A DNA stretch of 45,752 nt, from NCBI GenBank assembly GCA_017429685.1, contig JAFROL010000003.1, positions 1 to 45,752 of the forward strand. Direction: 5' to 3'. Origin of the DNA: Bacteroidales bacterium. Its GTDB lineage: Bacteria; Bacteroidota; Bacteroidia; Bacteroidales; P3. The stretch's first letter is position 1, and every line of letters begins with the position of its first letter. This document shows, in pieces, positions 10,708 through 26,473 of the stretch. The translations under genes were made by a program, and so were the position numbers. Under the pieces are notes generated by a model that was given only the letters and a program-made list of their open reading frames with translations, was not told the origin of the DNA and did no database searches.

Positions 10708-11367
10708 CTATTTGCCGCCGTAGTCCAGCTTTTCGAGCATAGGCACGAAATTGCAGTCGCCATAGCGCTGACGCAGCGTGTCGGCAGGACCGTCGCCGGT
10801 CTTGACGATGCGCAGCATCTCCTGGTGCTCGCCGCCAACAGGCACTACCATCACGCCGCCCACCTTGAGCTGGGCCAGCAGCTCTTCTGGCACCGCAGGT
10901 GCGCCGCAGGTGATGATGATGCGGTCGAACGGACCGTACTCGGGCAGGCCCCTGTAGCCGTCGCCAAGGAAGCATTTGGGGCGATAGTGCAGCCGCTCCA
11001 GCCGCGGTTTGGTGATGTCGTAGAGCTCCTTCTGGCGCTCGATGGTGAAGACGCGCAATCCCATAGCACACAGCACCGCCGTCTGGTAGCCGCTGCCGGT
11101 GCCCACCTCGAGCACCTTCATCTCGGGCTCGGCGTCGAGCAGCTCGCTCTGGAACGCCACCGTAGACGGCTGCGAGATGGTCTGGCCGCACTTGATGGGC
11201 AGCGCACGGTCCTCGTAGGCCATATAGTCGAGCATCGTCTCCAAAAACAGATGACGCGGCACCTCGGCCATTGCGTCGAGAACGCGACGGTCGCTGATGC
11301 CTTTTTCGCTCAGATGGCGCACCATCTCCATACGCCACCCTTTGTGTTTGAAACTGTCTTCCAACAT
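10708..11367 (-). CDS. pcm: Protein-L-isoaspartate O-methyltransferase
   Basis: The enzyme repairs aged proteins by methylating L-isoaspartyl residues with S-adenosylmethionine. It is 219 residues from the chosen start, the normal size. The family signature GQTISQP is at residues 61-67, SAM motif I LEVGTGSGYQTAVL at 86-99, and GPFDRIIITCGAP follows. The start at 11367 avoids a long overlap with thiL; an upstream in-frame ATG at 11412 would overlap it by 26 bases. It follows thiL by 19 bases and is probably in the same transcript. Confidence 0.94.
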   Translation of the reverse strand: MLEDSFKHKGWRMEMVRHLSEKGISDRRVLDAMAEVPRHLFLETMLDYMAYEDRALPIKCGQTISQPSTVAFQSELLDAEPEMKVLEVGTGSGYQTAVLCAMGLRVFTIERQKELYDITKPRLERLHYRPKCFLGDGYRGLPEYGPFDRIIITCGAPAVPEELLAQLKVGGVMVVPVGGEHQEMLRIVKTGDGPADTLRQRYGDCNFVPMLEKLDYGGK

Positions 11368-11386
11368 TATAGAATAGCCTCTCCTT

Positions 11387-12427
11387 TCATTCTCTAAAAC
11401 CTTGGGCCACAAGGGTGATAGTGCTGTTCTGCGGCGTAACCATCACGGCACCAAGGCCATCTTCGGTAATGTGGCCTATGATGTGCACGCCCTCCATATC
11501 CTTGACGCGCTCGTAGTCCTTCTGCGCGACGGTGAAAAGCAGCTCGTAGTCGCCGCCACCGTTGAGGGCGTTCGACACGGGCAGCATATTCTGGCTCATC
11601 TCGCTGCAGACGCGCGTGGTCTGGTAGTCGATGGGCAGGCGCTCCTCGTAGACCTCGCAGCCGCACTGCGACGCCTTGCAGAGGTGCAGCAGTTCCGACG
11701 CCAGCCCGTCGCTGACGTCGATCATCGACGTCGGCACAACGCCAGCCTTGGCAAGCGACTGCACGATGTCGAGACGCGGTTCGGGCTTGAGGAAACGCTC
11801 CAGCACGTAGTCGTACGAGTCCAGGTCGGGCTGGAAATTGGGGTTGGCCTGATAGGTCACCTTCTCGCGCTCCAGGATAAGCAGGCCCGAATAGGCGCTG
11901 CCAAGGTCGCCGCTGACGCAAATAAGGTCGTGCATCTGCGCACCCCTGCGGTAGGTCAGCTTGTCCTCGTCGGCCTCGCCGATAGCCGTCACCGTCAGCA
12001 CCATACCCGACCGGCTGCTGTTGGTGTCGCCGCCGACAAGGTCCACATCGTAGCGCTCGCAGCACAGGCGGATACCGGCATAGAGCTCTTCGAGCGCTTC
12101 GACCGAATAGCGGTTAGACACGGCAACGCTGACCGTCACCTGGCGCGGTGTGCCGTTCATCGCCGCAATATTGCTTAATGCCACGGCCACAGCCTTGTAG
12201 CCCAGATGTTTGAGCGGCGTATACATCATATCGAAATGTATGCCCTCGGCAAGGGTCTGCGTCGTGACGAGCATCTTGCGCTTGCCCTCGCCGATGACGG
12301 CGCAGTCGTCGCCAACACCCTTGACGGTCGAAGCATTGCGCGGCTCAAACTCGTCGGTAAGGCGGTCGATCAGCGCAAACTCGCCAAAAGCGTCAAGCTC
12401 GGTGCGGCCTTCCTGGTATTCTAACAT
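11387..12427 (-). CDS. thiL: Thiamine-monophosphate kinase
   Basis: The enzyme phosphorylates thiamine monophosphate to thiamine diphosphate with ATP. It has 346 residues from the start at 12427. Recognisable motifs are GVGDDCAVI (37-45), VGGDTNSSRSGMVLTVTAIGE, MIDVSDGLASEL and NGGGDYELLF. The frame extends to 12478, but that stretch contains the eno terminator and encodes unrelated residues, so the internal ATG is chosen. No other thiamine genes are nearby. It lies between eno and pcm. Confidence 0.93.
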   Translation of the reverse strand: MLEYQEGRTELDAFGEFALIDRLTDEFEPRNASTVKGVGDDCAVIGEGKRKMLVTTQTLAEGIHFDMMYTPLKHLGYKAVAVALSNIAAMNGTPRQVTVSVAVSNRYSVEALEELYAGIRLCCERYDVDLVGGDTNSSRSGMVLTVTAIGEADEDKLTYRRGAQMHDLICVSGDLGSAYSGLLILEREKVTYQANPNFQPDLDSYDYVLERFLKPEPRLDIVQSLAKAGVVPTSMIDVSDGLASELLHLCKASQCGCEVYEERLPIDYQTTRVCSEMSQNMLPVSNALNGGGDYELLFTVAQKDYERVKDMEGVHIIGHITEDGLGAVMVTPQNSTITLVAQGFRE

Positions 12428-12443
12428 CGATTGGTTTTGGTTT

Positions 12444-12490
12444 AAAAAAAGAAGGCGAGGAAATGAAAAAAATTTCATCTCCTCCCCTTC
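12444..12490 (-). terminator. Rho-independent terminator of eno
   Basis: On the minus strand a stem of GAAGGGGAGGAGATGAAA paired with TTTCATTTCCTCGCCTTC (12451-12490, a few mismatches) is followed directly by seven T residues (12444-12450). It begins 13 bases after the eno stop and ends 16 bases before thiL, so thiL depends on read-through or a promoter within the hairpin region. Confidence 0.85.
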
Positions 12491-12503
12491 TCAATGATAC
12501 TAT

Positions 12504-13805
<1,302 letters not shown>

Positions 13806-13905
13806 TTAAATATTTGAATTAATAATAACGTCTGAATTCTATTATTATTGTGTATTATTTGTATTTTTTTTGCATAAACGGAATGTAAACATAACTGCGT
13901 TTGTT

Positions 13906-15201
13906 TCAGTCGTTTACAACAAGAAATATAGCACCGCCGAGTTGACCGACAAGAATACATATAGAGATTATGATGGCGGCGACACAGCGCTGATGGTAGC
14001 GTATCTTGTCCTTTGGAGGTTTGATGGCATAGGCAGCGACAATCAATACTACCGCCAGAACAGCGACAGCCCCAAGCTGGGTTTCAAACGACAGAGCGTC
14101 GCCAAAAGCTCTTCCCACCTGCGCAGCCAAAGCACCCCACAGGAAGGGGAGCAAACAACCCACTATTATCATCGAATAGCGGAATTCCGCGCTAAAAATA
14201 TGCTCGTGCGGCCAACGACCGTGGCCTGTGTATTTTGGGGTGTCAGTGTCGGCTGGTCCAACCTTTTCCGCCGAGGCAGACTGTTTTGTTGGCGATGATT
14301 GTATTGTTGGCGAAATGTGGCTTTGTGAATCATCGACGTGACTGTGCATCATCTTAGTCCTTCGATTGAGTTCTTCGAGTGCGCCGTCATTCTGCTCGTC
14401 GGTCATACGGGTATTGAACAGGCCTGCACGGTTTTTCTTGTCCGATTGTTCGACTGGTGTGCCGTAGTACCAATCAAGTCTGTTCAACGCATACATCGCG
14501 TATTTCTTGAGTTGCGAGACATAACGTTCCTTTATCTGCTCGAATTCAGAAGCCGCAATACCATAGTCTTTCAGCCAGGCCCATAGCGACGAGTTGTCGT
14601 AAAGGCCGGCGTTGTGAAGGATGTGCAGTTCGTTGGCATCGTCGTCAAGCATTCTACGGACAGCCTGAAGCCGTTCGTACCACAGTATTTCGGTGAGGTC
14701 TTTCTTTTTCAGAAAGTTGAGGAGCTTGTCAAGAGCTTCCGAAAAAGCATCACCGTTGTACAAGATGTCCGGAAACCGGCTTGGCTCGTCGGTTTTGACG
14801 TGTTCCAACGTAAGATTTCCTGATTTGTCCGAGAAGTAGAAGTACTCCATTGGCACATCTTCGGTAATTGTATCAATCAGTTCACCGTCATCGTCGAATT
14901 CGGGAATCAGAGGTGCATAAGGGATTTCAATAGGCAAATACGGCTTCAGAACAATTGCCTCTTTTTCAAGTGCTTCTGGATTGTAACTAACTGTCGGTTC
15001 CTCTATCGGGAAAACCAAGAAGTAACAACCGGTATCGTCTTTGGTGGCATCGTCGTCAAGGCTTTGGAAGCTTATGCCACTGGTTTCGTCGGAAAAGGTC
15101 AGGTCCAGATGATACCTGGCCTTCAGGAAATGAGCGACCAACTGGTAAAGAATGATGTCGACATCAGCCTTTTTGATTGGGTACAGAGTATAGTCGGACA
15201 T
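13906..15201 (-). CDS. Uncharacterised protein with C-terminal membrane helices
   Basis: I do not recognise this 431-residue protein. A soluble N-terminal part (about 1-250) is rich in acidic and aromatic residues and resembles no motif I know. A polar, Ser/Thr-rich linker (about 285-330) follows, with SHISPTIQSSPTKQSAS. Three likely membrane helices lie at about 343-361, 376-393 and 406-428. The linker could be a target of the neighbouring Ser/Thr kinases, which is only inference. It starts 3 bases after the stop of the upstream unknown gene. It ends the eight-gene phospho-signalling block. Confidence 0.7.
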   Translation of the reverse strand: MSDYTLYPIKKADVDIILYQLVAHFLKARYHLDLTFSDETSGISFQSLDDDATKDDTGCYFLVFPIEEPTVSYNPEALEKEAIVLKPYLPIEIPYAPLIPEFDDDGELIDTITEDVPMEYFYFSDKSGNLTLEHVKTDEPSRFPDILYNGDAFSEALDKLLNFLKKKDLTEILWYERLQAVRRMLDDDANELHILHNAGLYDNSSLWAWLKDYGIAASEFEQIKERYVSQLKKYAMYALNRLDWYYGTPVEQSDKKNRAGLFNTRMTDEQNDGALEELNRRTKMMHSHVDDSQSHISPTIQSSPTKQSASAEKVGPADTDTPKYTGHGRWPHEHIFSAEFRYSMIIVGCLLPFLWGALAAQVGRAFGDALSFETQLGAVAVLAVVLIVAAYAIKPPKDKIRYHQRCVAAIIISICILVGQLGGAIFLVVND

Positions 15202-15204
15202 AGG

Positions 15205-16014
15205 TCAGCAATTGTTAATGGCGTACATCAAAGCCTTGTTGCGCTCGGCGGTGAAGAGGTCGGTTATTCTTTTGTGGTCTTCGGTTCCCGTCATCGGCAG
15301 GTCGTACCACGACCCCATACCATACCCCAACTTGGTGAGTTGCGCAGCAAGAAGGTACTTGAAATATGGCTCCTGGATGCGGAAAGTGTCGGGCTGACCG
15401 CTATATTCCACGCTTTCGCAATTCATAATGTCAAGGCCAGCCTTGAAATGGTTTATCCAATAGTCGAAAGGCGCGTAGGCGGCAATGGCTTCCAATGCTT
15501 TCTTGAACGTCACAGCATTATCAGGGAATTCGGGTCGATGGTAGTCCTGCTGCGACAAGGCAATCGGTTTGATAACCGGTTTGGTCGTTCCGTCTTTGAC
15601 TTCCTCGCCAGGAATAAAAGCTTTTACGTCGCCATCAGCATACCAGCATACCAGACAGCAGTAATGATTGCGTTTTGTGACAGCCTCGACTTCCGTTCCA
15701 CAAAGATAGACGATGTCCCAGATGCCTTTACATTTCTGCTCTTCATACCACGAGTTGCATATAACCTTGTAAACATCGTCTGGCCACTGGAACGGGATTT
15801 CGTTCCGGAAATCCTTTCTGGCCCTGACAGTCAATTCCATAAAGACAAGGTCGGCGGACCTGTATGCTTCACGTGATGAAGTGTAGGACTGTGACTTCGG
15901 TTTCGACTGCGAGACATAGACGTATGCTGCCGACCGCAGGCGACGGCAAATGTCGGTGCTGTCGACAGTGGCATCAGGTTGGTACCACGGGATGAAATGC
16001 TCTTGTTCTTTCAT
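15205..16014 (-). CDS. Uncharacterised soluble protein in the phospho-signalling block
   Basis: This 269-residue protein is unknown to me. There is no signal peptide or membrane helix, and it is rich in Tyr and Trp (FIPWYQPDATVDSTDICRR, WPDDVYKVICNSWYEEQK). It has several Cys residues, including CCLVCWY. The start at 16014 is preferred to 16113, because the longer form would run into the hairpin region after the kinase gene. The next gene follows after 3 bases, suggesting coupled translation and a shared function with the three-helix protein. Confidence 0.65.
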   Translation of the reverse strand: MKEQEHFIPWYQPDATVDSTDICRRLRSAAYVYVSQSKPKSQSYTSSREAYRSADLVFMELTVRARKDFRNEIPFQWPDDVYKVICNSWYEEQKCKGIWDIVYLCGTEVEAVTKRNHYCCLVCWYADGDVKAFIPGEEVKDGTTKPVIKPIALSQQDYHRPEFPDNAVTFKKALEAIAAYAPFDYWINHFKAGLDIMNCESVEYSGQPDTFRIQEPYFKYLLAAQLTKLGYGMGSWYDLPMTGTEDHKRITDLFTAERNKALMYAINNC

Positions 16015-16108
16015 CTGTTGCGTTATCCTGTTAAATTTTGGTGTGTTATATTTAATACAGAATAGAAGAAAACTCCTACGGAGTTGTTTATGGAGGTCCC
16101 CACAATAA

Positions 16109-16138
16109 AGCACCAGGGGAGACGGTCCACCTGGTGCT
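16109..16138 (-). terminator. Hairpin after the large kinase gene
   Basis: The stem AGCACCAGG with CCTGGTGCT encloses a 12-base loop and begins 19 bases after the kinase stop. On the minus strand it is followed by TTTATTGTGG, a weak T tract. It may attenuate rather than end transcription, since two more same-strand genes follow. Confidence 0.55.
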
Positions 16139-16157
16139 GATTTCTGTTATTTGGATT

Positions 16158-19100
16158 TTAAACTCTTACAGTACATATGACCTTGCCATCCTTATCAAGC
16201 AGCTTAGTGACCATATTGGGCTTATTGTCAAGAATAGCGCGGACATTTTTTGTCATTGTCACCAACTCGGTCTTCATTGCGGCGACGGTAGCGTCGTCAA
16301 GTTCGCTTACCGACACTATCGGAAAAACGAAAACCAACGTGCATTCATTGTCGCCAGTCGCGGTGGCCGACTTCATATACAGATGTCCCATCTCCTCGCC
16401 GTAGTCGTAGGGACACATCTTGTTAAGCTCTGCAACAGCATTACGCCAGCCACCACCGCTAGAGCCGGCGGCGGACTTGGATGAACCGTCAGCGGCCGGA
16501 CTTGCTTCTACAGTCGTCTTAGCATCATCGGTATCGCGTTGTGTCTTCCACTGGCTGCCATTCCATACTTGAGTCAGTAACAGCGTGCCGTCGACATCAT
16601 AGTAGCGTCGTTTAACCTGCAGCGACCTGTCGGTGTTGTATCCGATAACGACCTTGTGGAATCCATAATCACTCTTTACAGGCTTGCCTGTTGTTCCAAA
16701 ATAGGCCATTTCGCTAACCTTGTCTGAATTGTCAAGATACTTGTTAACGGATTTGTGATAGCCTTCGATTGACATCGGGTTGCCGTTGGTGCCAAAAAAG
16801 GCCGAGGTCACAAGGCGGTTGTTATCGTCATAATCCTGTGTAAGTTTATGGTATCCGTCGGGACAGAGAACGGGCTTGTCCTCTGACGAGAAATAACTTT
16901 CGGAAGTCAAATTGTTGTGACTGTCGTACTCATAGCGGCATATTGACCACTTACGGCCGGGAGCGTTGATGTAGTTGCCAAGGCCATCCTGAGCGGCAAT
17001 AAGAATCTGGTTTCCGCGATTATCGTACTGTGATATGTTGACAGGAGCCACAACATTGGGGTCGGTGGGTTTACCATCGGTGCCGTAGTAGCATTGTTTT
17101 ACAGGATTGCCAAAAGCATCATACTCGCACTTGACCTGCGACCAACCGTTCTTGACCTTTATAGGTTTACCGTCGGTTCCGAAATAGGAATAGGACGACA
17201 TATTACCACGTGCATCGTAATCCATTCGTTTTACTGCCCAGCCCTCGTCGTTGAGGGTAGGTTTGCCATTGGTACCAAAACAACTCTCTTCGGTCATTTG
17301 ATTACGGCTGTTGTATTTGTATTCGTAGCGATGTACCTTGTGCTGATTTGTCGTAGGCTTGTTGTTGCCGTCGAATACCGACAGTTCGGTCTTGTTGTTG
17401 CTGTTGTCATATTTATAACGGCTAATCAGATAGTTGCGCATTAGTTTGCCATCGGTGCCTATAAAGCATATCTCCTCAGCATTACCACGGTTGTCGCATC
17501 GCGAGATGTAGCCAGCAATTCCTTGGTCATTAATGACCAGACGGTCGTTGAGGTCGAAGGTTTTGAAAGAAGACACATAGCCATTTTCGTCATAGGTCCA
17601 GCGATAGTGGGCAGTGTGGCTTTTTTTATCGATAGTGGGTTTCCCGTCGACATCATACACATTAACATCCGTCAAGTTGCCTTTTTCATCATAAACCCAC
17701 TCTGTGCTTGCCACACCATATCTATTAGCCTTGGGGGTGACAAGGTCAGACGCGTAGTTGTTCTGCCTGATCATATTTCCACGGTTGTCGTAGATAATCT
17801 CAATCGAGGAAACCCCTGCATCGTTGACCGACACATTGCCGTCAGCGTCTATATACGTCTCCCTCACCAAGAGGTCGCGGTCGTCGTAAGCCATACGCTT
17901 TCCGCAATTAGGGCTGGAAACAACACTGGGGACTGGTTTGCGGTCGACACCATAACTCATTATTTCTATCTGACGGCCCAAGCTGTCATACTCGCACTTG
18001 AAGCCTGCCGAAGAATAGCCTTTCTGAGCAACCAACTCATCGTTTGACGTATAGTTCCAGGCTTCAATCCAGTTGCCATTCTCGTCGTTGAGATATGTTT
18101 GATGAGCCATACCTTCACCATTGTCTACCAGTTTACCCTCGGTGTCGTAGCTTGACATCTTGCTTACATATCCATTATCGTCGTATTCGTATTTAAGTGT
18201 TGCATAACCATTATTGCTTACAAACATTATGTTTCCATCAGCGTCCAGATAGTCGGTCTGCACAAGGAAGCCCTTGTCGTCGTATGAGTTTTTAACCCCG
18301 GCGACACCAGTAACAGCAGGATACATCGACGAACCGTCGGGATACTGGTACATTTCTTTCACCGGATTGCCATAAGCGTCGTATTCGCGTATCGTCACGT
18401 ATGCGCCGCCGACAAATTCAGGAGCCGGCTGTTCGTCGAAAGTTTGATACTCGTCGCGAACGAGATCGTCATCGTCATTGTAGGTGAAAATTTTTATTGC
18501 CATTCCCCAAACTGTCGACTTTGGTTCACCATCGGCGTTGATATAACGCACCTTTACGGGAAGGCCCTTCTCGTTACGCTCATAGACGCAGCCGTAGATG
18601 CCGTTGGCATCGGGCTGTACGCTGTTGTCGATTCCTGCATATCTGACCCTTACGAGATAGCCTTTCTCGTCGTATTCCAACCAATGGCGAGTTATGCGGC
18701 CCTTGCCATCTTTTCTGAAGTCCATCTCAATATCAACACTTGTCGTTGATTGCATTGACAGAGTGCGCTCAGTTCCGTGCTCGTCATTAAATTGGTAGGC
18801 CATTGTGTTCAGTTTGTCGTTATAACTCTTCACATAAAGGACTCTGCCCGAACGGTTTTTGACATAAACACGGCTGATTTTGCCATTATCGGAATAAGAG
18901 AACTCTTGCCATACAGGTATTTCATTCTTTTCCGACTGAACCTGGTCTATAACCTTCCCATAGGAATTGACAAACTTGACAGACTGCAATTTGTGCCGTT
19001 TGCTTTGGAAGACATACGAATTGTGGCGATGCGAGAACTCGGACTTGGAGAGTTTGTGTACACCCTGTGGGACTCCCCACACCTCGACATAGTCTTTGAA

Positions 19101-20033
19101 ATATGTCGTCTTGGTGCGGTTGAAGTCCCATATCCACAAGCCAGCACCAACGACAAGCAAGCCAGCAGCCACAGCGGCTATCTTCATCCACGTTTTCGGT
19201 TTCCAGGGGTAGACGACATTGTGCAGGGCTCGCTTGAATTCCTCACACGTTTGGAAACGGTCGTCAGGATTCTTGGCAGTAGCTTTGTCGACCACCTTTT
19301 GCATTCCCTCAGACACAAACTTGTAGTAAGTGCGCATTCGAGGCAGCGGCTCGCTGACCACCAATTTATTGATGTCGTGTTCAGTGAGAGTTGTGGTGTC
19401 GTATGGTGCATTGCCCGTCAGCATTTGGTGCAGTAGTACTCCGAGCGAGTAGATATCCGAACGGGCATCGAGTTTGTCGCCCCTCACTTGTTCTGGACTC
19501 ATATACGACGGTGTTCCCATAATGAGGTTGTCGTGCTGTTCGCCTTCGGTCTCATTCATAATCTTGGCGATACCGAAATCGAGTATCTTTGGAGTGCCAT
19601 CCGCAGTGACGACGATATTGGAGGGTTTGATGTCGCGATGAAGAATACCCTTATTGTGAGCATAGCCCACACCGTCGAGGATAGGCTCAAAAAGAGGACA
19701 TATTCGGTCCTCGACAATAAGGCCGTTAACATTATTGATGAAGGATTCGAGACTTTGTCCGTCTGCATATTCCATTATCAGAAAAATGGTTCCATCTTCA
19801 TCAATATGATAATCGTGGAAAGTGACAATATTTTGATGATGAAGACCTGCCAGATGCTCCGCTTCATCCTTCAACATCTTTCGGGTGAAATCGTTGACCA
19901 TATTGGCATTAATGACCTTAATGGCAACTTTTTGGTTCTCAATAAGCTTGTGTTCGGCGAGATATACTGCTCCCATACCGCCCTTACCCAACAGCGATAT
20001 TATCTTATAGTTCAATACTTCTTTACCTATCAT
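16158..20033 (-). CDS. Membrane Ser/Thr kinase with a giant YD-like repeat domain
   Basis: This 1291-residue protein has an N-terminal protein kinase domain (about 9-272): GKGGMGAVY loop (16-24), Lys39 (VAIKV), HRDIKPSN with Asp134, DFG Asp152, and GTPSYMSPEQ. A single membrane helix (283-302) follows. Residues about 330-1150 hold well over a dozen repeats of about 40-50 residues, with the pattern YDxxGN...YFGTDGKP, reminiscent of RHS/YD repeats. A linker rich in Ala and Ser (1165-1190) precedes a C-terminal domain of about 100 residues that I do not recognise. With the kinase inside, the repeat domain would face the periplasm, as in sensor kinases. It probably binds a ligand or envelope component; none is known. 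All catalytic residues are present. Confidence 0.88.
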   Translation of the reverse strand: MIGKEVLNYKIISLLGKGGMGAVYLAEHKLIENQKVAIKVINANMVNDFTRKMLKDEAEHLAGLHHQNIVTFHDYHIDEDGTIFLIMEYADGQSLESFINNVNGLIVEDRICPLFEPILDGVGYAHNKGILHRDIKPSNIVVTADGTPKILDFGIAKIMNETEGEQHDNLIMGTPSYMSPEQVRGDKLDARSDIYSLGVLLHQMLTGNAPYDTTTLTEHDINKLVVSEPLPRMRTYYKFVSEGMQKVVDKATAKNPDDRFQTCEEFKRALHNVVYPWKPKTWMKIAAVAAGLLVVGAGLWIWDFNRTKTTYFKDYVEVWGVPQGVHKLSKSEFSHRHNSYVFQSKRHKLQSVKFVNSYGKVIDQVQSEKNEIPVWQEFSYSDNGKISRVYVKNRSGRVLYVKSYNDKLNTMAYQFNDEHGTERTLSMQSTTSVDIEMDFRKDGKGRITRHWLEYDEKGYLVRVRYAGIDNSVQPDANGIYGCVYERNEKGLPVKVRYINADGEPKSTVWGMAIKIFTYNDDDDLVRDEYQTFDEQPAPEFVGGAYVTIREYDAYGNPVKEMYQYPDGSSMYPAVTGVAGVKNSYDDKGFLVQTDYLDADGNIMFVSNNGYATLKYEYDDNGYVSKMSSYDTEGKLVDNGEGMAHQTYLNDENGNWIEAWNYTSNDELVAQKGYSSAGFKCEYDSLGRQIEIMSYGVDRKPVPSVVSSPNCGKRMAYDDRDLLVRETYIDADGNVSVNDAGVSSIEIIYDNRGNMIRQNNYASDLVTPKANRYGVASTEWVYDEKGNLTDVNVYDVDGKPTIDKKSHTAHYRWTYDENGYVSSFKTFDLNDRLVINDQGIAGYISRCDNRGNAEEICFIGTDGKLMRNYLISRYKYDNSNNKTELSVFDGNNKPTTNQHKVHRYEYKYNSRNQMTEESCFGTNGKPTLNDEGWAVKRMDYDARGNMSSYSYFGTDGKPIKVKNGWSQVKCEYDAFGNPVKQCYYGTDGKPTDPNVVAPVNISQYDNRGNQILIAAQDGLGNYINAPGRKWSICRYEYDSHNNLTSESYFSSEDKPVLCPDGYHKLTQDYDDNNRLVTSAFFGTNGNPMSIEGYHKSVNKYLDNSDKVSEMAYFGTTGKPVKSDYGFHKVVIGYNTDRSLQVKRRYYDVDGTLLLTQVWNGSQWKTQRDTDDAKTTVEASPAADGSSKSAAGSSGGGWRNAVAELNKMCPYDYGEEMGHLYMKSATATGDNECTLVFVFPIVSVSELDDATVAAMKTELVTMTKNVRAILDNKPNMVTKLLDKDGKVICTVRV

Positions 20034-20074
20034 AACTAATGTGGATTTAATTGTTGAATTATTAAAATTAATGA

Positions 20075-20596
20075 CTATGACAAACTAATTATCAATACCG
20101 TTATCGACCAAACCGCATTGATCGCAACCGACATCCAGGCAAGCAGATTAGCTTGAGCCGCTTTCTTGGGATATTGTTTCCTCCATTTGAAAAACATTAT
20201 CCATCCAGCTATCGGTACAAGGAAGGCTAAAATTCCACTCGTGATATCGATAGGACTCTGGTCGCCCATAGGCTGATAGGCTGACGACGGAGGCATAGAG
20301 GATCTAACCTGAGTGCCGCCGTCGTAGGGGCGCGAGTGCTGAAGTGGGAGCATACTGTAGACTTGAGCCCACGGCAGGGGTATGCGACCGGCAATAAGTA
20401 TCTCTGTGCCGGGGCTTATGGTGATACGCTCGCCACGGATGATGCGACCACCTATCACGGAGCCGTTCCTACTGACATCCTCGTATACGTAGTTGCCTCC
20501 TACTATTGAAATACGCGCGTGTTCACGACTGACGTTTTCGTCGGGCACTATGATGTCGCAACTACTACTGCGCCCTATGGTCAACATTGATTTCAT
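20075..20596 (-). CDS. FHA-domain protein with two membrane helices
   Basis: The 173-residue protein starts with an FHA phosphothreonine-binding domain (about 4-75): GRS (8-10), SREH (23-26) and the conserved Asn44 in SRNGS. Likely membrane helices lie at about 120-137 and 151-171 with a short Lys-rich turn between (KWRKQYPKKA). Just after the FHA core is RIPLPWAQV, also seen after the FHA domain of the neighbouring kinase (KLPWDRV). It probably recruits phosphorylated partners to the inner membrane. It lies between the two kinase genes, 41 bases from the large one. Confidence 0.85.
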   Translation of the reverse strand: MKSMLTIGRSSSCDIIVPDENVSREHARISIVGGNYVYEDVSRNGSVIGGRIIRGERITISPGTEILIAGRIPLPWAQVYSMLPLQHSRPYDGGTQVRSSMPPSSAYQPMGDQSPIDITSGILAFLVPIAGWIMFFKWRKQYPKKAAQANLLAWMSVAINAVWSITVLIISLS

Positions 20597-20735
20597 AATA
20601 TCTGAAAATTAAATTGATATGTAATATGACATATTTATTTGACATTTATGGTGATTCGATTTAAAAGAAAATGATAGTTTTTGACTGTTTAATTAGTTTC
20701 ATTTTTTTCGACGCTGTAATACGTGCCTTTATCCA

Positions 20736-22244
20736 TCAGATGTCGCGTCCATTTGTCCAATAGCCTTGAGTGCTATCGGTCGGTTCCACATAGTAATAAT
20801 CCGACCCAAGGACTGGCTCATCCATTGGTTCAGCATAAGGGTAGTCCTCACTGGCGGCCTCTTCTGACACCAAATCATATCCCCAATTGTTTTCGTTTCG
20901 GTTGTTAAGCTTCGATATCACGACAATAATTCCTACAATAAAGGCAAAAACAAGCACGAACAATATGATGAGTAATGTTTTTGTCAAACCATTGCCTGTC
21001 TCTTTTTCCGGCACATTACCTGAAACAGACTGCGTTGTTGCTGAGTTTGCAATAGTAGCGTCTTCGCTGACTGTTGCTGACTGTTGCTGACTATAGTCGG
21101 GTTGAGGAGCAGAGAGTGCGTCTGGAGGATTCCAGCCGCGTGAGCGAAGCAAGGTGACTACCCTATCCCACGGCAGTTTGCACTCAATGCGCGCGGCCAG
21201 CAACACCAGGGGCAACATATCTGACGACTCGTACGGGACATTCATAGTGCCTTTGAGTGGACGACCGTCAACACCGGTTCCATTGGTACCATTATTAGTT
21301 ATTTCCAAATAATAGCGTACACCCGAAGGAATTTCTTCTTCGCATCCGCGAATGACAAGATGACGGCGGCTTACGTACTGATTATTAATCTGTATATCGT
21401 TGTCAGCATCACGGCCAACGGTAACAGTAGGAACTGTGTTTGCGTCGACAGCAAGCAGAGCTTCGCGAAATGCGGCAGCACTCTGATAGCGCTTGCGCAT
21501 ATCCTTATCGACAGCCTTGAAGAACACCTGGTCAACAGCCAGAGGAATAGAAGGGTTTATCTGGGACGGAATAGGAACCTTGCCGTGAATGATGGCATCA
21601 ATGGTGTCAAAATCACTGGAGCCTTTCTGAATCATATTCTGGCCAGTGACGATGAAGAAGAATACACATCCCAGCGAGTAGATGTCGGTACGAAGGTCGA
21701 TGTTGAGGCCATAAGCTTGTTCGGGGCTCATATAGCCATCGGTGCCGATGATGCGTCCGACGGTATGTCCGGTGCCGCCAATTTTGGCATCCTTGGCTAT
21801 TCCGAAATCGATGATACAAACTGTACCGTCAGGACGGAGCATAATGTTGGATGGCTTGATGTCGCGATGGATGCGGCGTTGGTCGTGCACATATTGCATA
21901 GCATCCAGAATCTTGCACATCAGCTCAATGGCATACTGGTAAGGGAAGGGACCTTGTTGACGCACAATCTGTTCGAGGGTCTGTCCTTCGACAAACTCCA
22001 TAGGGAGGTAATAGTTTCCGGAGCTGTCCGAATAGGGTTCGCCAAGAATATGCACCACCGAAGGGTGATCCATCTGTCGCAGGGTGTCGACCTCGGCTTG
22101 GAAGAGCTCGCGGTATTCGGGATAGCACGTCACCTTGTTGCTCAGCATCTTAAGAGCCACAGTACGGCCATTGGCGTCCTCGGCTTTATAGACGCAACCC
22201 ATTCCTCCGTGTCCGATTTCTTTTATGATTCTATAGTCTGACAT
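20736..22244 (-). CDS. Ser/Thr kinase fused to an FHA domain, membrane-anchored
   Basis: The protein is 502 residues. The kinase domain (about 4-265) has GHGGMGCVY (11-19), Lys32, HRDIKPSN with Asp128, DFG Asp146 and GTDGYMSPEQ. An FHA domain (about 273-350) follows: GRD (277-279), SRRH (292-295) and TNNGTNGTG. After a Ser/Gln/Thr-rich linker there is one membrane helix (423-444) and an acidic, Tyr-rich tail, probably periplasmic. The FHA domain on the kinase itself suggests binding of its own or partners' phosphothreonines. It starts 12 bases after the phosphatase stop. Confidence 0.93.
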   Translation of the reverse strand: MSDYRIIKEIGHGGMGCVYKAEDANGRTVALKMLSNKVTCYPEYRELFQAEVDTLRQMDHPSVVHILGEPYSDSSGNYYLPMEFVEGQTLEQIVRQQGPFPYQYAIELMCKILDAMQYVHDQRRIHRDIKPSNIMLRPDGTVCIIDFGIAKDAKIGGTGHTVGRIIGTDGYMSPEQAYGLNIDLRTDIYSLGCVFFFIVTGQNMIQKGSSDFDTIDAIIHGKVPIPSQINPSIPLAVDQVFFKAVDKDMRKRYQSAAAFREALLAVDANTVPTVTVGRDADNDIQINNQYVSRRHLVIRGCEEEIPSGVRYYLEITNNGTNGTGVDGRPLKGTMNVPYESSDMLPLVLLAARIECKLPWDRVVTLLRSRGWNPPDALSAPQPDYSQQQSATVSEDATIANSATTQSVSGNVPEKETGNGLTKTLLIILFVLVFAFIVGIIVVISKLNNRNENNWGYDLVSEEAASEDYPYAEPMDEPVLGSDYYYVEPTDSTQGYWTNGRDI

Positions 22245-22256
22245 AAGAAAAGGGAT

Positions 22257-23531
22257 TTATGAGTTGCTCTCGCCGTCGTTCGTGCTGTTTGCCTTGGGCG
22301 CAGGCTGGTTCTGGCTTTCGTGCTGCTTGCTGTCGTCAGGACCGGACCCTGCGTCGGAACTGCCTTTGGTCGGATTGTCCTGTTTGGTTTCCTTTTGTTG
22401 CGAATCGGTCTTTTGTTCCTTGTTTGCAGCAGTGTTTTTCTTCGAATCGGTCACCGTCGATGCAGGATCACTCTTCCTATCGGCATTACCCCTGCCCTTT
22501 GTGACGGCTTTCGGCTGATTGCCAGTAGCGGCATTGTTGTCCGATGTTGCATCATCGTCGTTCACCAGTGCTTCGGGTTGAGCGTCAGTCTGTCCAGCCG
22601 AGTCTGTCAGCACTGTCTGTTCCGTCTGCTCGCTTTCAGCAGTTTCTGCTTTGTTATTCCTTACGTATTTAAATAAAAGGAAGAGGCATAATGCTAAAAC
22701 TATTATTGCTGCCGGGATTCCACAGGTGAGCCATTTTTTGCGTTTTGCTGCCTGTAAGCTCAGTTCTTGAGGGCTGACCGCAAACTCGACGATGATGCTT
22801 GTGATATTGTCCAAACCTCCTTTTTCGCGTGCGCGGCGGATGAGTTCATTGACCCTCTCGCGCTGAGTCATACCCGTCTGATTGCTGACCACCTTAAGAA
22901 TATCGTGGTCGCTAACCATACCGCTGAGGCCGTCAGAACAGAGCAGGAAGCAGTCGCCCGCTTCGGGAATGATGGCATCGGGCAGCACTGTGGCCGGCCG
23001 CATACCCTCCAACCCGAGAGCGTTGGTTATTTCGTTCTTGCGCGGATGATGCTCGGCCTGTTCCTTAGTCAGTTCGCCCGAATCGACCAACATTTGCACG
23101 AAACTCTGGTCTTTGGTAAGTTGAGTGATTGTCTTGCTGCGTATCAAGTAGATGCGGCTATCGCCCACCGAACCCAGATAGACTTTTCCGTCACGGACAA
23201 CAAGCATCACCAAAGTGGCACCCATACCTTTCAGTTCGGGCTGCTCGGAAGTGCGTTTCAATATTGCCGCATTTGCCGCATTTGCCGCATCGACAATAGC
23301 CCTGCGCGGGTCGTCATAGTAGTGGCTTTTCAGCAGTTGCTCAATGGTCTCGACAGCCAGGTGCGAAGCCACCGCACCACCCACGTGGCCGCCCATTCCA
23401 TCGCATACCACACTGACAAGGCCGTTCTCGCTTTCGAAATAGGTGAGCCAGTCTTCGTTGGCCTTACGCTTGCAGCCCACGTTGGTGTCGCCTACCACGT
23501 TGCAGTAGCTGTATGGATTTTTATCTTTCAT
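22257..23531 (-). CDS. PP2C-family Ser/Thr phosphatase with membrane anchor
   Basis: This 424-residue metal-dependent phosphatase would reverse the phosphorylation made by the two kinases nearby. PP2C motifs are present: CDGMGGHVGG (Asp44), VGDSRIYLI, CSDGLSGMVSD (Asp200) and GGLDNITSIIVEF (Asp241, Asn242). A membrane helix (267-289) follows the catalytic domain (1 to about 252). The last 135 residues are low-complexity, rich in Thr, Ser, Asp, Gln and Lys, and probably periplasmic. An in-frame 9-base tandem repeat encodes the Asn-Ala-Ala run at about residues 82-89. It starts 9 bases after the zinc ribbon-FHA gene. Confidence 0.95.
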   Translation of the reverse strand: MKDKNPYSYCNVVGDTNVGCKRKANEDWLTYFESENGLVSVVCDGMGGHVGGAVASHLAVETIEQLLKSHYYDDPRRAIVDAANAANAAILKRTSEQPELKGMGATLVMLVVRDGKVYLGSVGDSRIYLIRSKTITQLTKDQSFVQMLVDSGELTKEQAEHHPRKNEITNALGLEGMRPATVLPDAIIPEAGDCFLLCSDGLSGMVSDHDILKVVSNQTGMTQRERVNELIRRAREKGGLDNITSIIVEFAVSPQELSLQAAKRKKWLTCGIPAAIIVLALCLFLLFKYVRNNKAETAESEQTEQTVLTDSAGQTDAQPEALVNDDDATSDNNAATGNQPKAVTKGRGNADRKSDPASTVTDSKKNTAANKEQKTDSQQKETKQDNPTKGSSDAGSGPDDSKQHESQNQPAPKANSTNDGESNS

Positions 23532-23540
23532 AGCAGAAAA

Positions 23541-24116
23541 TTAAAATGCCGGGATTCCGAGGAAGAGTAGTTTTGTATTGCCGGCAGTGATAACATCGTT
23601 GGTGTGAAGTTCCACAAGACCACGGGCGAACTTGCCGTTGATGTAGGTTCCGTTCGACGACTTCTGGTCTTCGGCCCACACAATACCCTCCGCCTCCACA
23701 TAAAGAATCAAGAGGTGTTGACCAGACATCTTATCGTCGCGAACGAAAGGGATGTCGGCCGTATTGGAACGTCCAATAATGTTGCGGCCTTCATATATCT
23801 TGTATACCTCGCCCGCCGGATTGTCGTTAAAGGATACCAGCAATCCAACCAGTTTGCGACCTCCATCAGGATTGGACTCGTTTCCGCCAGCGGTACGGAT
23901 TACGGTGTGTCCACCGGCAAAATCATCTTGGAATGCAGCAGTTGCCATCGTGGCCGCAGGCGAGCCCCAGCCCTCGCCCACCGCGCGGGTCTCGCCGCTA
24001 AAATCGTTAGAATCGTCGTTCACTCTTGTGTGTCCGCTTTCAGGACAGAAGGGACAGTTGTCACCATAGATGTTGGAATCGTACTGGTGACCATTGGGAC
24101 ATTTTTTTGTTGCCAT
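23541..24116 (-). CDS. Zinc ribbon-FHA adaptor protein
   Basis: The 191-residue protein begins with CPNGHQYDSNIYGDNCPFC, a probable small zinc ribbon (Cys6, His10, Cys21, Cys24). A flexible Thr-rich stretch (30-75) contains HTRVNDD, ETRAVGE and HTVIRTAG, plausible phosphothreonine sites for the FHA partners, by analogy with other short adaptors. The FHA domain is at about 108-187: GRS (115-117), SGQH (131-134) and SSNGTYING. No membrane helix is present, so it is probably a soluble adaptor of the system. Confidence 0.88.
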   Translation of the reverse strand: MATKKCPNGHQYDSNIYGDNCPFCPESGHTRVNDDSNDFSGETRAVGEGWGSPAATMATAAFQDDFAGGHTVIRTAGGNESNPDGGRKLVGLLVSFNDNPAGEVYKIYEGRNIIGRSNTADIPFVRDDKMSGQHLLILYVEAEGIVWAEDQKSSNGTYINGKFARGLVELHTNDVITAGNTKLLFLGIPAF

Positions 24117-24154
24117 AATATTATTGATATTTAACGTTTTGCTTGCTTGACTTT

Positions 24155-25462
24155 TCAGAACGTTTGTTTTATGAAATCGGATGCAGCTCTGGGCTTGATG
24201 GCCTGATTGTGCTGGGCAGGAATGCGCTGTATAGCGCCATCGGGACCGACACTGCGGTATTCCATACCTGAGACAATGATACCTGCGAACTTGCCTTTCG
24301 AGTCGAATATCGGCGAGCCGCTTGCGCCGTGAGTCGTGTTTATGTTGTGACCATAGACATAGTCGTTAACTGTCTGGTTGACAGAACCGCTCTCATTGGT
24401 AGCCTGCACCCCTTGCTGTGTAAGAGCCCAATCCAATCCATTGGGGAATCCAATCGTGTATAGGCTCTTGCCCATAGCCAAATCTTTATCGGACGATATG
24501 TCCGACACGTCGACAATCTTGGTCACATTCGAGGGCGTCTGTTTGGAATTGATCTGTATCACCGCCACATCAAGTTGAGCGTTGTCGCTTACCCTAAGAA
24601 GCGTACAAGGAGTCAGGTCGCGGGCATCGCTTAGGTGCGCATCGTTCATCGCGACCGACAACGAACTGACATAGTTTACCGTAAGGTTATTCACATAATT
24701 CACTACCCGGTAGTCGTAATTGTAGCTTTCCAGCAATACATTCGATACAACTTTCTTGATATACTGGGCTATGGCTTCCTCCTGCCCCATAAGGGTTACC
24801 ACGTGACGGTTGGTGGCTATTTTTCCATCGTTTGAGACGAAAAAACCAGTACCCATAACTCCTGTTGTGCCAGCCACAACCTCGTCTTTCTCGTTGAGGT
24901 GAACATTGTCCGGCATACCAGAGATTACCTTGCTTAGGTCGTAATCCCCAACCTTAAGGCGGAAGGCATATTCGTTGTATATCAGCACAACACTTTTCTT
25001 GTATTGTGCGTATATTTCCTCAGGCTTCATTTTTCCGCCCAAGACAAAATGCAAAATACTCCACACTCCAATTGAAACAATCGCCACTGCGGCAACAATA
25101 ATAATCCATTTGTTGCTCTTTTTGGTAGCAGAGGGGGCCACTGGAGTACTGGGTGTCGGTGCGGACGCACTGAAGTCCCTGTATGATGGCGAGGGTTGAG
25201 GCTGGGATATTTTGCTTTGTACTATAATACCTTTCAACGACGTTACTTCTGTGCCAAAACGGATGGTATCGGATATCGACACTCGTGTCGGACCGCTGAT
25301 TCGACGGTTATTGACAAAGGTGCCGTTTGTTGACCCTAAATCTTTGATTACGCCGGTGGTTCCTGTATCGTCAAGCGAAATCACGGCGTGGGAAGAAGAT
25401 ACTGTGTCGTTCGTAAACACACATTCGTTTGTGCGGGATCGGCCAATCGTAATAGTTCTCAT
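24155..25462 (-). CDS. FHA domain fused to a membrane-tethered trypsin-like protease
   Basis: The 435-residue protein has an FHA domain (1 to about 75: GRS, SSSH 22-25, GSTNGTFVNN 43-52) and a Pro/Ser-rich linker. One membrane helix (119-141) comes next, and then a trypsin-like protease domain. The triad is His220 (GKIATNRHVV), Asp298 (LDVAVIQI) and Ser381 (HGASGSP), all intact; DegP-like PDZ domains are absent. The protease would lie in the periplasm and the FHA domain in the cytoplasm. This suggests control of periplasmic proteolysis by cytoplasmic phosphorylation, or a clustering anchor. It is the first gene of the block. Confidence 0.9.
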   Translation of the reverse strand: MRTITIGRSRTNECVFTNDTVSSSHAVISLDDTGTTGVIKDLGSTNGTFVNNRRISGPTRVSISDTIRFGTEVTSLKGIIVQSKISQPQPSPSYRDFSASAPTPSTPVAPSATKKSNKWIIIVAAVAIVSIGVWSILHFVLGGKMKPEEIYAQYKKSVVLIYNEYAFRLKVGDYDLSKVISGMPDNVHLNEKDEVVAGTTGVMGTGFFVSNDGKIATNRHVVTLMGQEEAIAQYIKKVVSNVLLESYNYDYRVVNYVNNLTVNYVSSLSVAMNDAHLSDARDLTPCTLLRVSDNAQLDVAVIQINSKQTPSNVTKIVDVSDISSDKDLAMGKSLYTIGFPNGLDWALTQQGVQATNESGSVNQTVNDYVYGHNINTTHGASGSPIFDSKGKFAGIIVSGMEYRSVGPDGAIQRIPAQHNQAIKPRAASDFIKQTF

Positions 25463-26065: not shown

Positions 26066-26473
26066 ATGGAAACGAACATTATTCACAATAATCTATTGGG
26101 TCTGATATTGACCCTTTTAATAATCATCCCCTCCTGTAAGGCAACGGCACAGGATGACTATTACACAAGACAGGCAAAGTCTTATATGAATGATGCCGAC
26201 TACTACAACAAGAAGGCGGAGAGTTATGAGCGGGAAGCTGCATACTACAACAAAAAAGCACAAGACTATTTACGCGAGGCCGACTACTACACAAGGCACA
26301 ACAACCCCGACAAGGCAAAAATGTATACTCGCTGGGCAGAAGATGCGCTGGATAAAGCCCGAATGCAAAACAAATGGGCATCGGATGCAAGAGACAAAGC
26401 CCGAATGAGGATGAAATGGGCTGACGAAGCAATGCAGAAAGCGGCCGCCGAAAGCAGAAAGCGACTCAGATAA
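26066..26473 (+). CDS. Small exported protein of 14-residue helical repeats
   Basis: The 135-residue protein has a hydrophobic N-terminal export signal (residues 9-22) with IIIPSC, a possible lipobox (Cys24), or cleavage after KATA. The rest is about seven repeats of 14 residues: YYTRQAKSYMNDAD, YYNKKAESYEREAA, YYNKKAQDYLREAD, then degenerate copies with Trp. Tyr or Met pairs, Lys-Ala and a final Ala recur at fixed positions. This predicts a long amphipathic helix or coiled coil of very high charge. The function is unknown. It diverges from the phospho-signalling block, with about 150 bases to that promoter. Confidence 0.7.
   Translation: METNIIHNNLLGLILTLLIIIPSCKATAQDDYYTRQAKSYMNDADYYNKKAESYEREAAYYNKKAQDYLREADYYTRHNNPDKAKMYTRWAEDALDKARMQNKWASDARDKARMRMKWADEAMQKAAAESRKRLR

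What the first reader, a model, noticed from the sequence alone, without database searches (positions are those of the whole stretch)
13906..25462. Eight-gene membrane phospho-signalling module with two kinases, PP2C, four FHA proteins and a tethered protease
Seen: consecutive minus-strand genes with small gaps encode Ser/Thr kinases (two, all catalytic residues present), one PP2C, four FHA-containing proteins and two unknown proteins. All but the zinc ribbon-FHA protein and one unknown have membrane segments. Known: kinase-PP2C-FHA sets control type VI secretion and other machines, but no secretion, Ter or phage-defence genes are in this window. Inference: a self-contained sensor system whose outputs are the FHA-protease and the two unknown proteins.
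Basis: partly seen in the sequence, partly recalled or inferred. Interest (0 to 1): 0.78.

Follow-up and report, generated by a model that had tools for sequence, protein, structure and literature searches.

The report
Membrane kinase receptor with Rhs-like ectodomain
A gut bacterium carries a recurring set of six genes that looks like an envelope-spanning alarm receptor, and the outer half of that receptor also turns up fused to immune-type signalling domains in other bacteria.

Summary
In detail: eight minus-strand genes with two intact Ser/Thr kinases, one PP2C, four FHA proteins (all FHA matches of this genome) and an FHA-TM-trypsin protease. The module is real but has six genes. FHA-protease, zinc-ribbon FHA, PP2C, FHA-kinase and giant kinase keep one order in 11 of 11 complete type A loci (two are near-copies); the small FHA-TM protein is in 7 of 11. 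The two unknown genes are in none of 24 related stretches, form their own two-gene cassette in genomes without FHA matches, and lie behind a possible terminator. They are probably not outputs. The giant kinase looks like a receptor: kinase, one TM, then about 990 residues with 22 repeats of mostly 32-33 residues, whose confident AlphaFold model locally resembles Rhs/teneurin beta-repeats. The same TM-plus-ectodomain follows TIR domains (Brachyspira, Bacteroidales) and nSTAND1 NTPases with TIR or SIR2-TIR neighbours. Best reading: an accessory envelope receptor system in which a ligand activates the kinase, a zinc-ribbon FHA hub with four invariant Thr and an FHA-guided periplasmic protease respond, and PP2C resets. 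Threat sensing is inferred, not shown. Ten literature searches of the held library found no account of this ectodomain.

The parts
24155..25462 (-). FHA-TM-trypsin-like protease (435 aa): FHA 4-70, TM about 119-137, protease 204-395 with H220, D298, S381; predicted periplasmic protease steered from the cytoplasm
   Evidence: Pfam FHA 5e-17, Trypsin_2 3.7e-18; TM; H220, D298, S381 invariant in 12 of 12
23541..24116 (-). Zinc-ribbon FHA protein (191 aa), soluble, with four invariant Thr in an otherwise variable linker; predicted phosphorylated hub
   Evidence: Pfam FHA 1.1e-12; alignment of 12 homologues; zinc ribbon named by eye from conserved Cys/His
22257..23531 (-). PP2C phosphatase (424 aa), Stp1/IreP type, one TM and C-terminal tail
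   Evidence: NCBIfam NF033484 239.8 bits, cut-off 230; TM 268-286
20736..22244 (-). Ser/Thr kinase with FHA domain and one TM (502 aa)
   Evidence: Pfam Pkinase 1.6e-45, FHA 5.8e-12; catalytic motifs; TM 425-443
20075..20596 (-). Small FHA protein with two TM segments (173 aa)
   Evidence: Pfam FHA 1.1e-14; TM
16158..20033 (-). Receptor kinase (1291 aa): kinase 9-264, TM 283-301, Rhs-like ectodomain about 303-1291
   Evidence: Pfam Pkinase 5.6e-52; TM; model mean pLDDT 87.1; Foldseek to Rhs proteins, best E 1.8e-31
16161..19127 (-). Ectodomain of the receptor kinase: anchor motif RTKxxYFKDYVEVWGVPQGV, then 22 repeats of mostly 32-33 aa (aa 454-1164, marked by eye), then a small C-terminal domain
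16109..16138 (-). Hairpin after the receptor kinase stop codon, followed by UUUAUU; possible terminator between module and unknown genes
   Evidence: z-score -3.42 against 200 shuffles for the 76-nt stretch, which holds two hairpins; the pattern scan did not list it
15205..16014 (-). Unknown gene A (269 aa), not part of the conserved module
   Evidence: pairs with unknown gene B in G115 and G098; 0 of 24 ectodomain stretches
13906..15201 (-). Unknown gene B (431 aa, three C-terminal TM), not part of the conserved module
   Evidence: remnant of its 3' end beside eno in G082

Best explanation
This is an accessory, envelope-spanning Ser/Thr phospho-signalling system of six genes. The receptor is the 1291-aa kinase: cytoplasmic Hanks kinase, one TM, and a long Rhs/teneurin-like beta-repeat ectodomain in the periplasm (architecture shown from sequence and a predicted model; orientation inferred). 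Ligand binding would cluster the receptor and start phosphorylation of itself, of the FHA-kinase and of the zinc-ribbon FHA protein, whose linker keeps four invariant Thr (sites inferred). FHA domains then read the phospho-Thr. The cytoplasmic FHA of the TM-protease would be recruited so that its intact trypsin-like domain cuts a periplasmic target (inferred). PP2C resets the system (inferred from family). Most relatives also encode a secreted protein with a fold like type III secretion chaperones near the receptor gene, a candidate ligand-presenting partner; the window's contig lacks it. Because the same TM-anchored ectodomain is fused to TIR domains and to nSTAND1 NTPases encoded beside TIR or SIR2-TIR genes, the signal sensed is most likely a threat to the envelope (phage, competitor or damage). 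That last step is the least certain, about 0.4 on its own.
For: Fixed gene order in 11 of 11 complete type A loci from named genome records for five of the six genes, and 7 of 11 for the small FHA protein (coordinates; L144 and L145 are 97-98% identical). A parallel type B cluster has matches to PP2C, the small FHA protein and the receptor kinase in 7 of 7 loci, with FHA-trypsin proteins confirmed in the three scanned. Kinase motifs intact; protease H, D and S in 12 of 12. FHA motifs GR, SxxH and NG are present in all four FHA domains. Zinc-ribbon FHA: four invariant Thr in a gapped linker across 12 rows. Ectodomain model pLDDT 87.1, best matches Rhs effectors, then teneurins. Secreted partner in 14 of 19 kinase-type loci by tblastn and in L151 by blastp; model pLDDT 86.7, top PDB matches mostly type III secretion chaperones. 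Ectodomain on TIR proteins and on nSTAND1 proteins with TIR or SIR2-TIR neighbours, with one TM just before the anchor motif. Ectodomain repeats diverge faster than the kinase domain: 38% against 68% mean pairwise identity in 12 homologues.
Against: No function, ligand, substrate or phosphorylation was measured. The gene-order count is conditioned on loci fetched by the ectodomain, and all 19 kinase-type loci come from MAGs (titles). Flanking genes are not a defence island: among 104 flank proteins no Pfam family is in more than 5, and PADLOC matches are few. No match on plasmids, no relative in viral contigs, and one weak phage match. The charge rule does not settle the TM orientation in eight kinase rows (2-4 K/R before, 3-4 after), though the TIR rows lean to a cytoplasmic N-terminus. 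TM-scores to Rhs, teneurin and Tc shells, normalised by the model, are only 0.13-0.27, so a closed shell is not shown. The partner's best PDB match has E 1.4e-3, none below 1e-3, and its Pfam matches are below cut-off. The nSTAND rows match the anchor weakly and lie on long branches. FHA-trypsin proteins also occur away from this receptor: G440 beside another kinase and a 22% match in G094. The window's contig lacks the secreted partner.
Confidence: 0.6

Rival explanations
1. The eight genes form one self-contained sensor module whose outputs are the protease and the two unknown proteins.
For: All eight genes are on one strand with small gaps.
Against: Unknown genes absent from 24 of 24 ectodomain stretches; they form their own pair in G115 and G098, genomes with no FHA match; possible terminator between them and the module; G130 has the module without the pair next to it.
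Confidence: 0.07
2. It is an antiphage or abortive-infection system of the kinase-kinase-phosphatase (KKP) kind.
For: PP2C directly followed by an FHA-kinase, with a second kinase further on; PADLOC PD-T4-6 kinase models match both kinases; the receptor ectodomain is shared with TIR and nSTAND1 proteins.
Against: No cold-shock domain on a kinase in Pfam; PADLOC gives no cut-off and Hanks kinases in general may match; the receptor gene is 3.9 kb and membrane anchored; the flanking genes scanned are chromosomal housekeeping genes such as enolase, ribosomal protein L17 and RpoA; few PADLOC matches in relatives' flanks.
Confidence: 0.15
3. It is a housekeeping-like envelope stress or cell-wall sensor of the PknB/PrkC kind, without a role in conflict.
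For: Stp1-type PP2C over cut-off; weak HtrA/Do-like similarity of the protease, far below model cut-off; varied, largely housekeeping-like families in relatives' flanks among the 25 of 122 listed.
Against: Sporadic distribution: ectodomain in 3 of 392 other order genomes, FHA-protease orthologue in 2 of 119 other genomes of the genus, one of them a contig-edge piece; no PASTA kinase (254.9 and 257.6 bits against cut-off 450); same ectodomain on TIR and nSTAND1 proteins.
Confidence: 0.25
4. It regulates a type VI secretion system, as PpkA/PppA/Fha do.
For: FHA, PP2C and kinase combination; weak TagH match of the small FHA protein.
Against: TagH score 47.7 against cut-off 120.25; none of the window proteins scanned is a T6SS part (the rest of the contig and the genome were not scanned); no T6SS family among the 25 of 122 flank families listed for relatives.
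Confidence: 0.04

Closest known systems
KKP kinase-kinase-phosphatase module (Pf prophages; PMC11341870, passages seen)
   Same: PP2C and two Ser/Thr kinases, one with an FHA domain
   Different: No cold-shock domain, a membrane receptor kinase with an Rhs-like ectodomain, extra FHA proteins, an FHA-protease, and not the direct triplet order
PknB/PrkC-type receptor kinases with Stp PP2C (PASTA kinases; general description recalled)
   Same: Hanks kinase, one TM, extracytoplasmic sensor, PP2C and FHA partners
   Different: No PASTA model match over cut-off; ectodomain of 22 beta-repeats
Rhs effectors and teneurins (YD-repeat shells)
   Same: Beta-repeat ectodomain; teneurins are also transmembrane proteins (PMC5898268, start of abstract in the listing)
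   Different: 32-33-aa repeat unit, kinase inside, low global TM-score, no toxin domain identified
Common extracellular sensory domains shared by different receptors (Zhulin 2003, seen only as a reference-list entry)
   Same: One ectodomain attached to different cytoplasmic outputs
   Different: Outputs here are Ser/Thr kinase, TIR and STAND NTPase
Other zinc-ribbon-FHA/PP2C/kinase clusters of the same genus
   Same: Zinc-ribbon FHA, PP2C, kinases and FHA proteins clustered
   Different: No match to the ectodomain part in the stretches compared; FHA-protease-like protein in only one of them (G094, 22% identity)

Membership tests
Hanks kinase / PP2C / FHA signalling module | Catalytic motifs of kinase intact | tested here: met
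   both kinases
Hanks kinase / PP2C / FHA signalling module | Stp1-type PP2C | tested here: met
   239.8 bits, cut-off 230
Hanks kinase / PP2C / FHA signalling module | Phospho-Thr binding motifs in FHA domains | tested here: met
   GR, SxxH, NG in four of four, read from the sequences; motifs as named in PMC1262709
PASTA kinase (PknB, Stk1) | PASTA kinase model, cut-off 450 bits | tested here: not met
   254.9 and 257.6 bits, kinase part only
KKP | PP2C directly followed by two kinases of under 1300 b (filter in PMC11341870) | tested here: not met
   small FHA gene between the kinases; kinase genes of 1509 and 3876 b
KKP | Cold-shock domain on one kinase | tested here: not met
   no such Pfam match up to E 0.1
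KKP | Location in a prophage | tested here: inconclusive
   lies between ribosomal protein L17 and enolase genes; phage genes were not searched for in the whole contig
T6SS threonine phosphorylation pathway | TagH/Fha protein over cut-off | tested here: not met
   47.7 against 120.25 bits
T6SS threonine phosphorylation pathway | T6SS genes in the genome | not tested
Rhs/YD-repeat proteins | Beta-repeat fold | tested here: met
   Foldseek best E 1.8e-31 to Rhs cores; global TM-score low; Pfam RHS_repeat 3e-06, 27.9 bits, cut-off 22
Rhs polymorphic toxins | C-terminal toxin domain with immunity gene | tested here: inconclusive
   no Pfam match in the C-terminal part; it is the least conserved part, 27% mean identity
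Ectodomain shared by different TM receptors | Same ectodomain after one TM on at least two output types | tested here: met
   kinase, TIR, nSTAND1

The most novel reading that the evidence does not exclude
Bacteria have a family of pattern-recognition-like receptors: one TM-anchored Rhs/teneurin-like ectodomain that is exchanged between Ser/Thr kinase, TIR and STAND NTPase signalling domains, a Toll-like layout in which the window's six-gene module is the phospho-signalling branch with a periplasmic protease as effector.
Probability: 0.35. Interest if true: 0.9.

Novelty: new variant of a known kind. Interest (0 to 1): 0.72.

Why it matters
Kinase/PP2C/FHA modules are known, but here one has a defined receptor, a candidate secreted partner and a candidate proteolytic output, all testable. 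A single ectodomain family that plugs into kinase, TIR and STAND outputs would suggest that bacteria recombine receptors and immune-type effectors as animals and plants do, and it gives a short motif for finding more. I found no paper on a bacterial kinase or TIR protein with such an ectodomain in ten searches of the held library; most subscription papers are not in that library.

Tried and rejected
Considered and rejected: the two unknown genes as outputs. A second genomic copy of the unknown genes: it is a redundant contig. Clostridial host for L141: its genome's RpoA is 67% identical to the window's, like the Bacteroidales records in the same call, so the record title is probably misleading. 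L142's genome gives 40%, so it is either a true transfer or a contaminating contig, and this was not resolved. Defence island: not supported by flanks (single flank proteins did match PADLOC TIR, CARF-regulator and LeoA models). Plasmid, phage and viral-contig carriers: none convincing (unknown B has no plasmid match). First genome-contig scan with the FHA-protease: no relative. PDB by sequence: nothing for the ectodomain at E 0.01, nothing convincing for the unknowns at E 1. Rfam: no match at gathering cut-offs. Spirochaete hits to repeats only (G965, G1085, G1170) were not counted as the ectodomain; G1085's protein has a caspase domain and repeats without the anchor motif. G1061's match starts at profile position 26 and its protein has no Pfam match; it was not counted either.

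Rows dropped: 104 of the 127 flank ORFs listed were given. I left out short or antisense-looking ORFs and genes inside type B clusters. The tree used only rows that matched the anchor (32). In the phylum search G705 and G633 matched only the repeat part of the profile and were not counted. In one search the tool scored at most two candidates per genome, so weaker ectodomain proteins could be missed there; one search was run for that reason.
Full report
Observation. The eight minus-strand genes are present at the stated coordinates. Pfam and NCBIfam give, from 5' to 3': FHA-trypsin, zinc-ribbon FHA (ribbon by eye), PP2C, kinase-FHA, FHA-TM, giant kinase with an RHS_repeat match, and two unknowns. 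Both kinases keep their catalytic motifs. All four FHA matches of the assembly lie here. The window is one whole contig (C1) of a 52-contig, 2.65-Mb genome. Its congener G130 corresponds to the record titled 'Bacteroidales bacterium isolate RGIG4882 Roe_deer_Rumen-1'.

Six genes, not eight. In G130 the same six genes stand in the same order, with a secreted-looking 154-aa protein before the giant kinase and no unknown genes after it. A search of named genome contigs with an alignment of the ectodomain anchor gave 22 loci. Twelve are of one kind (type A), one of them cut by a contig end; one of the complete ones is G130. In the 11 complete ones the FHA-protease, zinc-ribbon FHA protein, PP2C, FHA-kinase and giant kinase are all present in that order; the small FHA protein is in 7 of 11 and the secreted protein in 8 of 11. 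L144 and L145 are 97-98% identical there, so ten are distinct. Seven loci are of a second kind (type B), with matches to PP2C, the small FHA protein and the giant kinase in all seven. FHA-trypsin proteins were confirmed by Pfam in the three scanned and read in the sequence of a fourth (L083, the same locus as L152). The last three loci are TIR proteins (below).

The unknown pair. Unknown A had no match in 60 relatives. Unknown B matched in 3 of 118 other genomes of the genus, one of them only a 36-residue piece. In G115 and G098 the two genes lie together beside genes such as ATP synthase, an MFS transporter or a release factor, at 49/41% and 46/35% identity, in genomes with no FHA match (76% and 87% complete). 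In the window a 76-nt stretch with hairpins, z-score -3.4, follows the giant kinase; the pattern scan did not list it. The pair is therefore most likely a separate cassette.

Site. The flanking genes are ribosomal protein L17 (rplQ) with RpoA on one side and enolase (eno) on the other (Pfam). In 14 of 29 congener eno loci examined, rplQ lies within 580 b of eno on the same strand. The window has 13 kb between them, so the island is most simply an insertion. In the other 15, rplQ was not within the 1.5 kb held. Four of those were looked at further, and in two (G001, G004) an ORF of 687 or 659 aa stands before eno. In G082, the relative with 96% identical enolase, the stretch between the end of rplQ and eno holds a decayed match to the last 36 residues of unknown B, as expected if a similar island was lost there.

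Receptor. The giant kinase has one TM (283-301) and then a conserved anchor motif and 22 repeats of mostly 32-33 residues, marked by eye. AlphaFold on an alignment of 17 ectodomains gave mean pLDDT 87.1, two strands per repeat. Foldseek matched Rhs cores (best E 1.8e-31), teneurins and Tc-toxin shells, with model-normalised TM-scores of 0.13-0.27. So the repeat is Rhs-like locally, but the overall shape may differ. In 12 type A proteins mean pairwise identity is 68% in the kinase, 46% in the TM-anchor part, 38-39% in the repeats and 27% in the C-terminal domain. The window's kinase domain is about equally close to its congener G130/L146 (81%) and to L136 (79%), but its anchor is closer to L136 (60%) than to L146 (40%). 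The tree puts the window with L136-L138 (95/90) and not with L146, whose own place is unresolved. This fits exchange or fast change of the ectodomain.

Shared ectodomain. The same TM plus anchor follows a TIR domain in Brachyspira innocens (three proteins), in two MAG records titled Prevotellaceae and Bacteroidales, and in G501 of the window's order. In the genus of B. innocens 4 of 26 genomes have it, with eight matches; the five outside B. innocens were checked with a local TIR profile and all had TIR (Pfam on one of them). In the phylum search 7 of 395 genomes matched, the window's included; four, all of one genus, have an N-terminal nSTAND1-type NTPase, one TM and the anchor (Pfam run on three of the four). 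Beside these lie SIR2-TIR or TIR-DUF4062 genes in the three whose neighbour was scanned. G361 has only TM helices before the anchor. The nSTAND rows group together (94/99 support, just below the tool's joint star); the TIR rows need at least two changes by starred branches.

Other parts. The FHA-protease keeps H220, D298 and S381 in 12 of 12 sequences. The zinc-ribbon FHA protein has four invariant Thr in a linker of variable length in 12 sequences; the gaps there make the alignment less certain. The secreted partner models with pLDDT 86.7 as alpha-beta3-alpha-beta2-alpha; its top PDB matches are mostly type III secretion chaperones and DR_1245, best E 1.4e-3. One member has a sub-threshold Pfam match to a YbjN/type III chaperone family, TY-Chap1. 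That DR_1245 is YbjN-like is recalled.

Mechanism. Shown: gene content, order, domain make-up, intact active-site residues, shared ectodomain. Inferred: periplasmic side of the ectodomain, phosphorylation of the linker Thr, recruitment of the protease by phospho-Thr, reset by PP2C, and threat sensing. For threat sensing the argument is the company of the ectodomain (TIR, SIR2, STAND), its sporadic spread and its fast divergence. Against it stand flanks without defence islands and the absence of any assay.

Comparison. It works like a PknB-type receptor system but fails the PASTA criterion. It resembles KKP in having PP2C and an FHA kinase, but lacks the cold-shock domain and the direct triplet (PMC11341870, passages). 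Papers: passages of PMC7159879, PMC8195603, PMC11341870, PMC1262709 and PMC3482391 were seen; others only as search listings. None of the passages seen describes this ectodomain on a kinase, TIR or STAND protein.

Verdict. A real, recurring six-gene receptor module with an ectodomain, apparently unreported, shared by three output types; function untested.

Noticed in passing
window 13906-16014; L125 8072-10468; L126 8174-10546: Unknown genes A and B form a conserved two-gene cassette in other chromosomal contexts in genomes without FHA matches; no Pfam family for the window copies; function unknown.
   Followed up: partly
L127 8684-9215 (G082): Decayed 3' remnant of unknown gene B between the end of rplQ and eno in a close relative, as if an island was lost.
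   Followed up: partly
window 26066-26473: Plus-strand ORF of 135 aa with a signal-like start and Tyr/Ala-rich repeats between rplQ and the module; no match in the other fetched loci.
   Followed up: partly
G000 contig C42 (L033): 5418-b contig repeats window 10792-16209 at 99.98%: assembly redundancy or strain variant.
   Followed up: yes
L034-L035 (G114), L036 (G067): Congeners carry other FHA/kinase/PP2C clusters, with 12 FHA matches per genome in G067 and G114.
   Followed up: partly
L170 8668-11796; L169 6107-7465: nSTAND1-ectodomain proteins encoded beside TIR-DUF4062 and SIR2-TIR proteins, and one protein with sub-threshold SLATT matches: candidate defence operons.
   Followed up: partly
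L155 (Brachyspira innocens): Three TIR-TM-ectodomain paralogues in one neighbourhood, plus ORFs that match repeats only.
   Followed up: partly
L188 7019-9631 (G1085): Caspase-domain protein with C-terminal repeats of the same kind but without the anchor motif.
   Followed up: partly
L089 7588-10640 (G440): Kinase gene next to an FHA-FHA-TM-trypsin protein without the ectodomain kinase: FHA-proteases also pair with other kinases.
   Followed up: no
L149 13552-15288: Protein with BspA-type leucine-rich repeats joined to the secreted-partner domain, close to the receptor kinase.
   Followed up: no
L083 9570-9572 (G258): In-frame stop in the receptor kinase of this MAG; real decay or sequencing error not decided.
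   Followed up: no
L144 13436-14311; L139 13872-15062: M48 metallopeptidase and papain-like peptidase genes close to two type A clusters.
   Followed up: no
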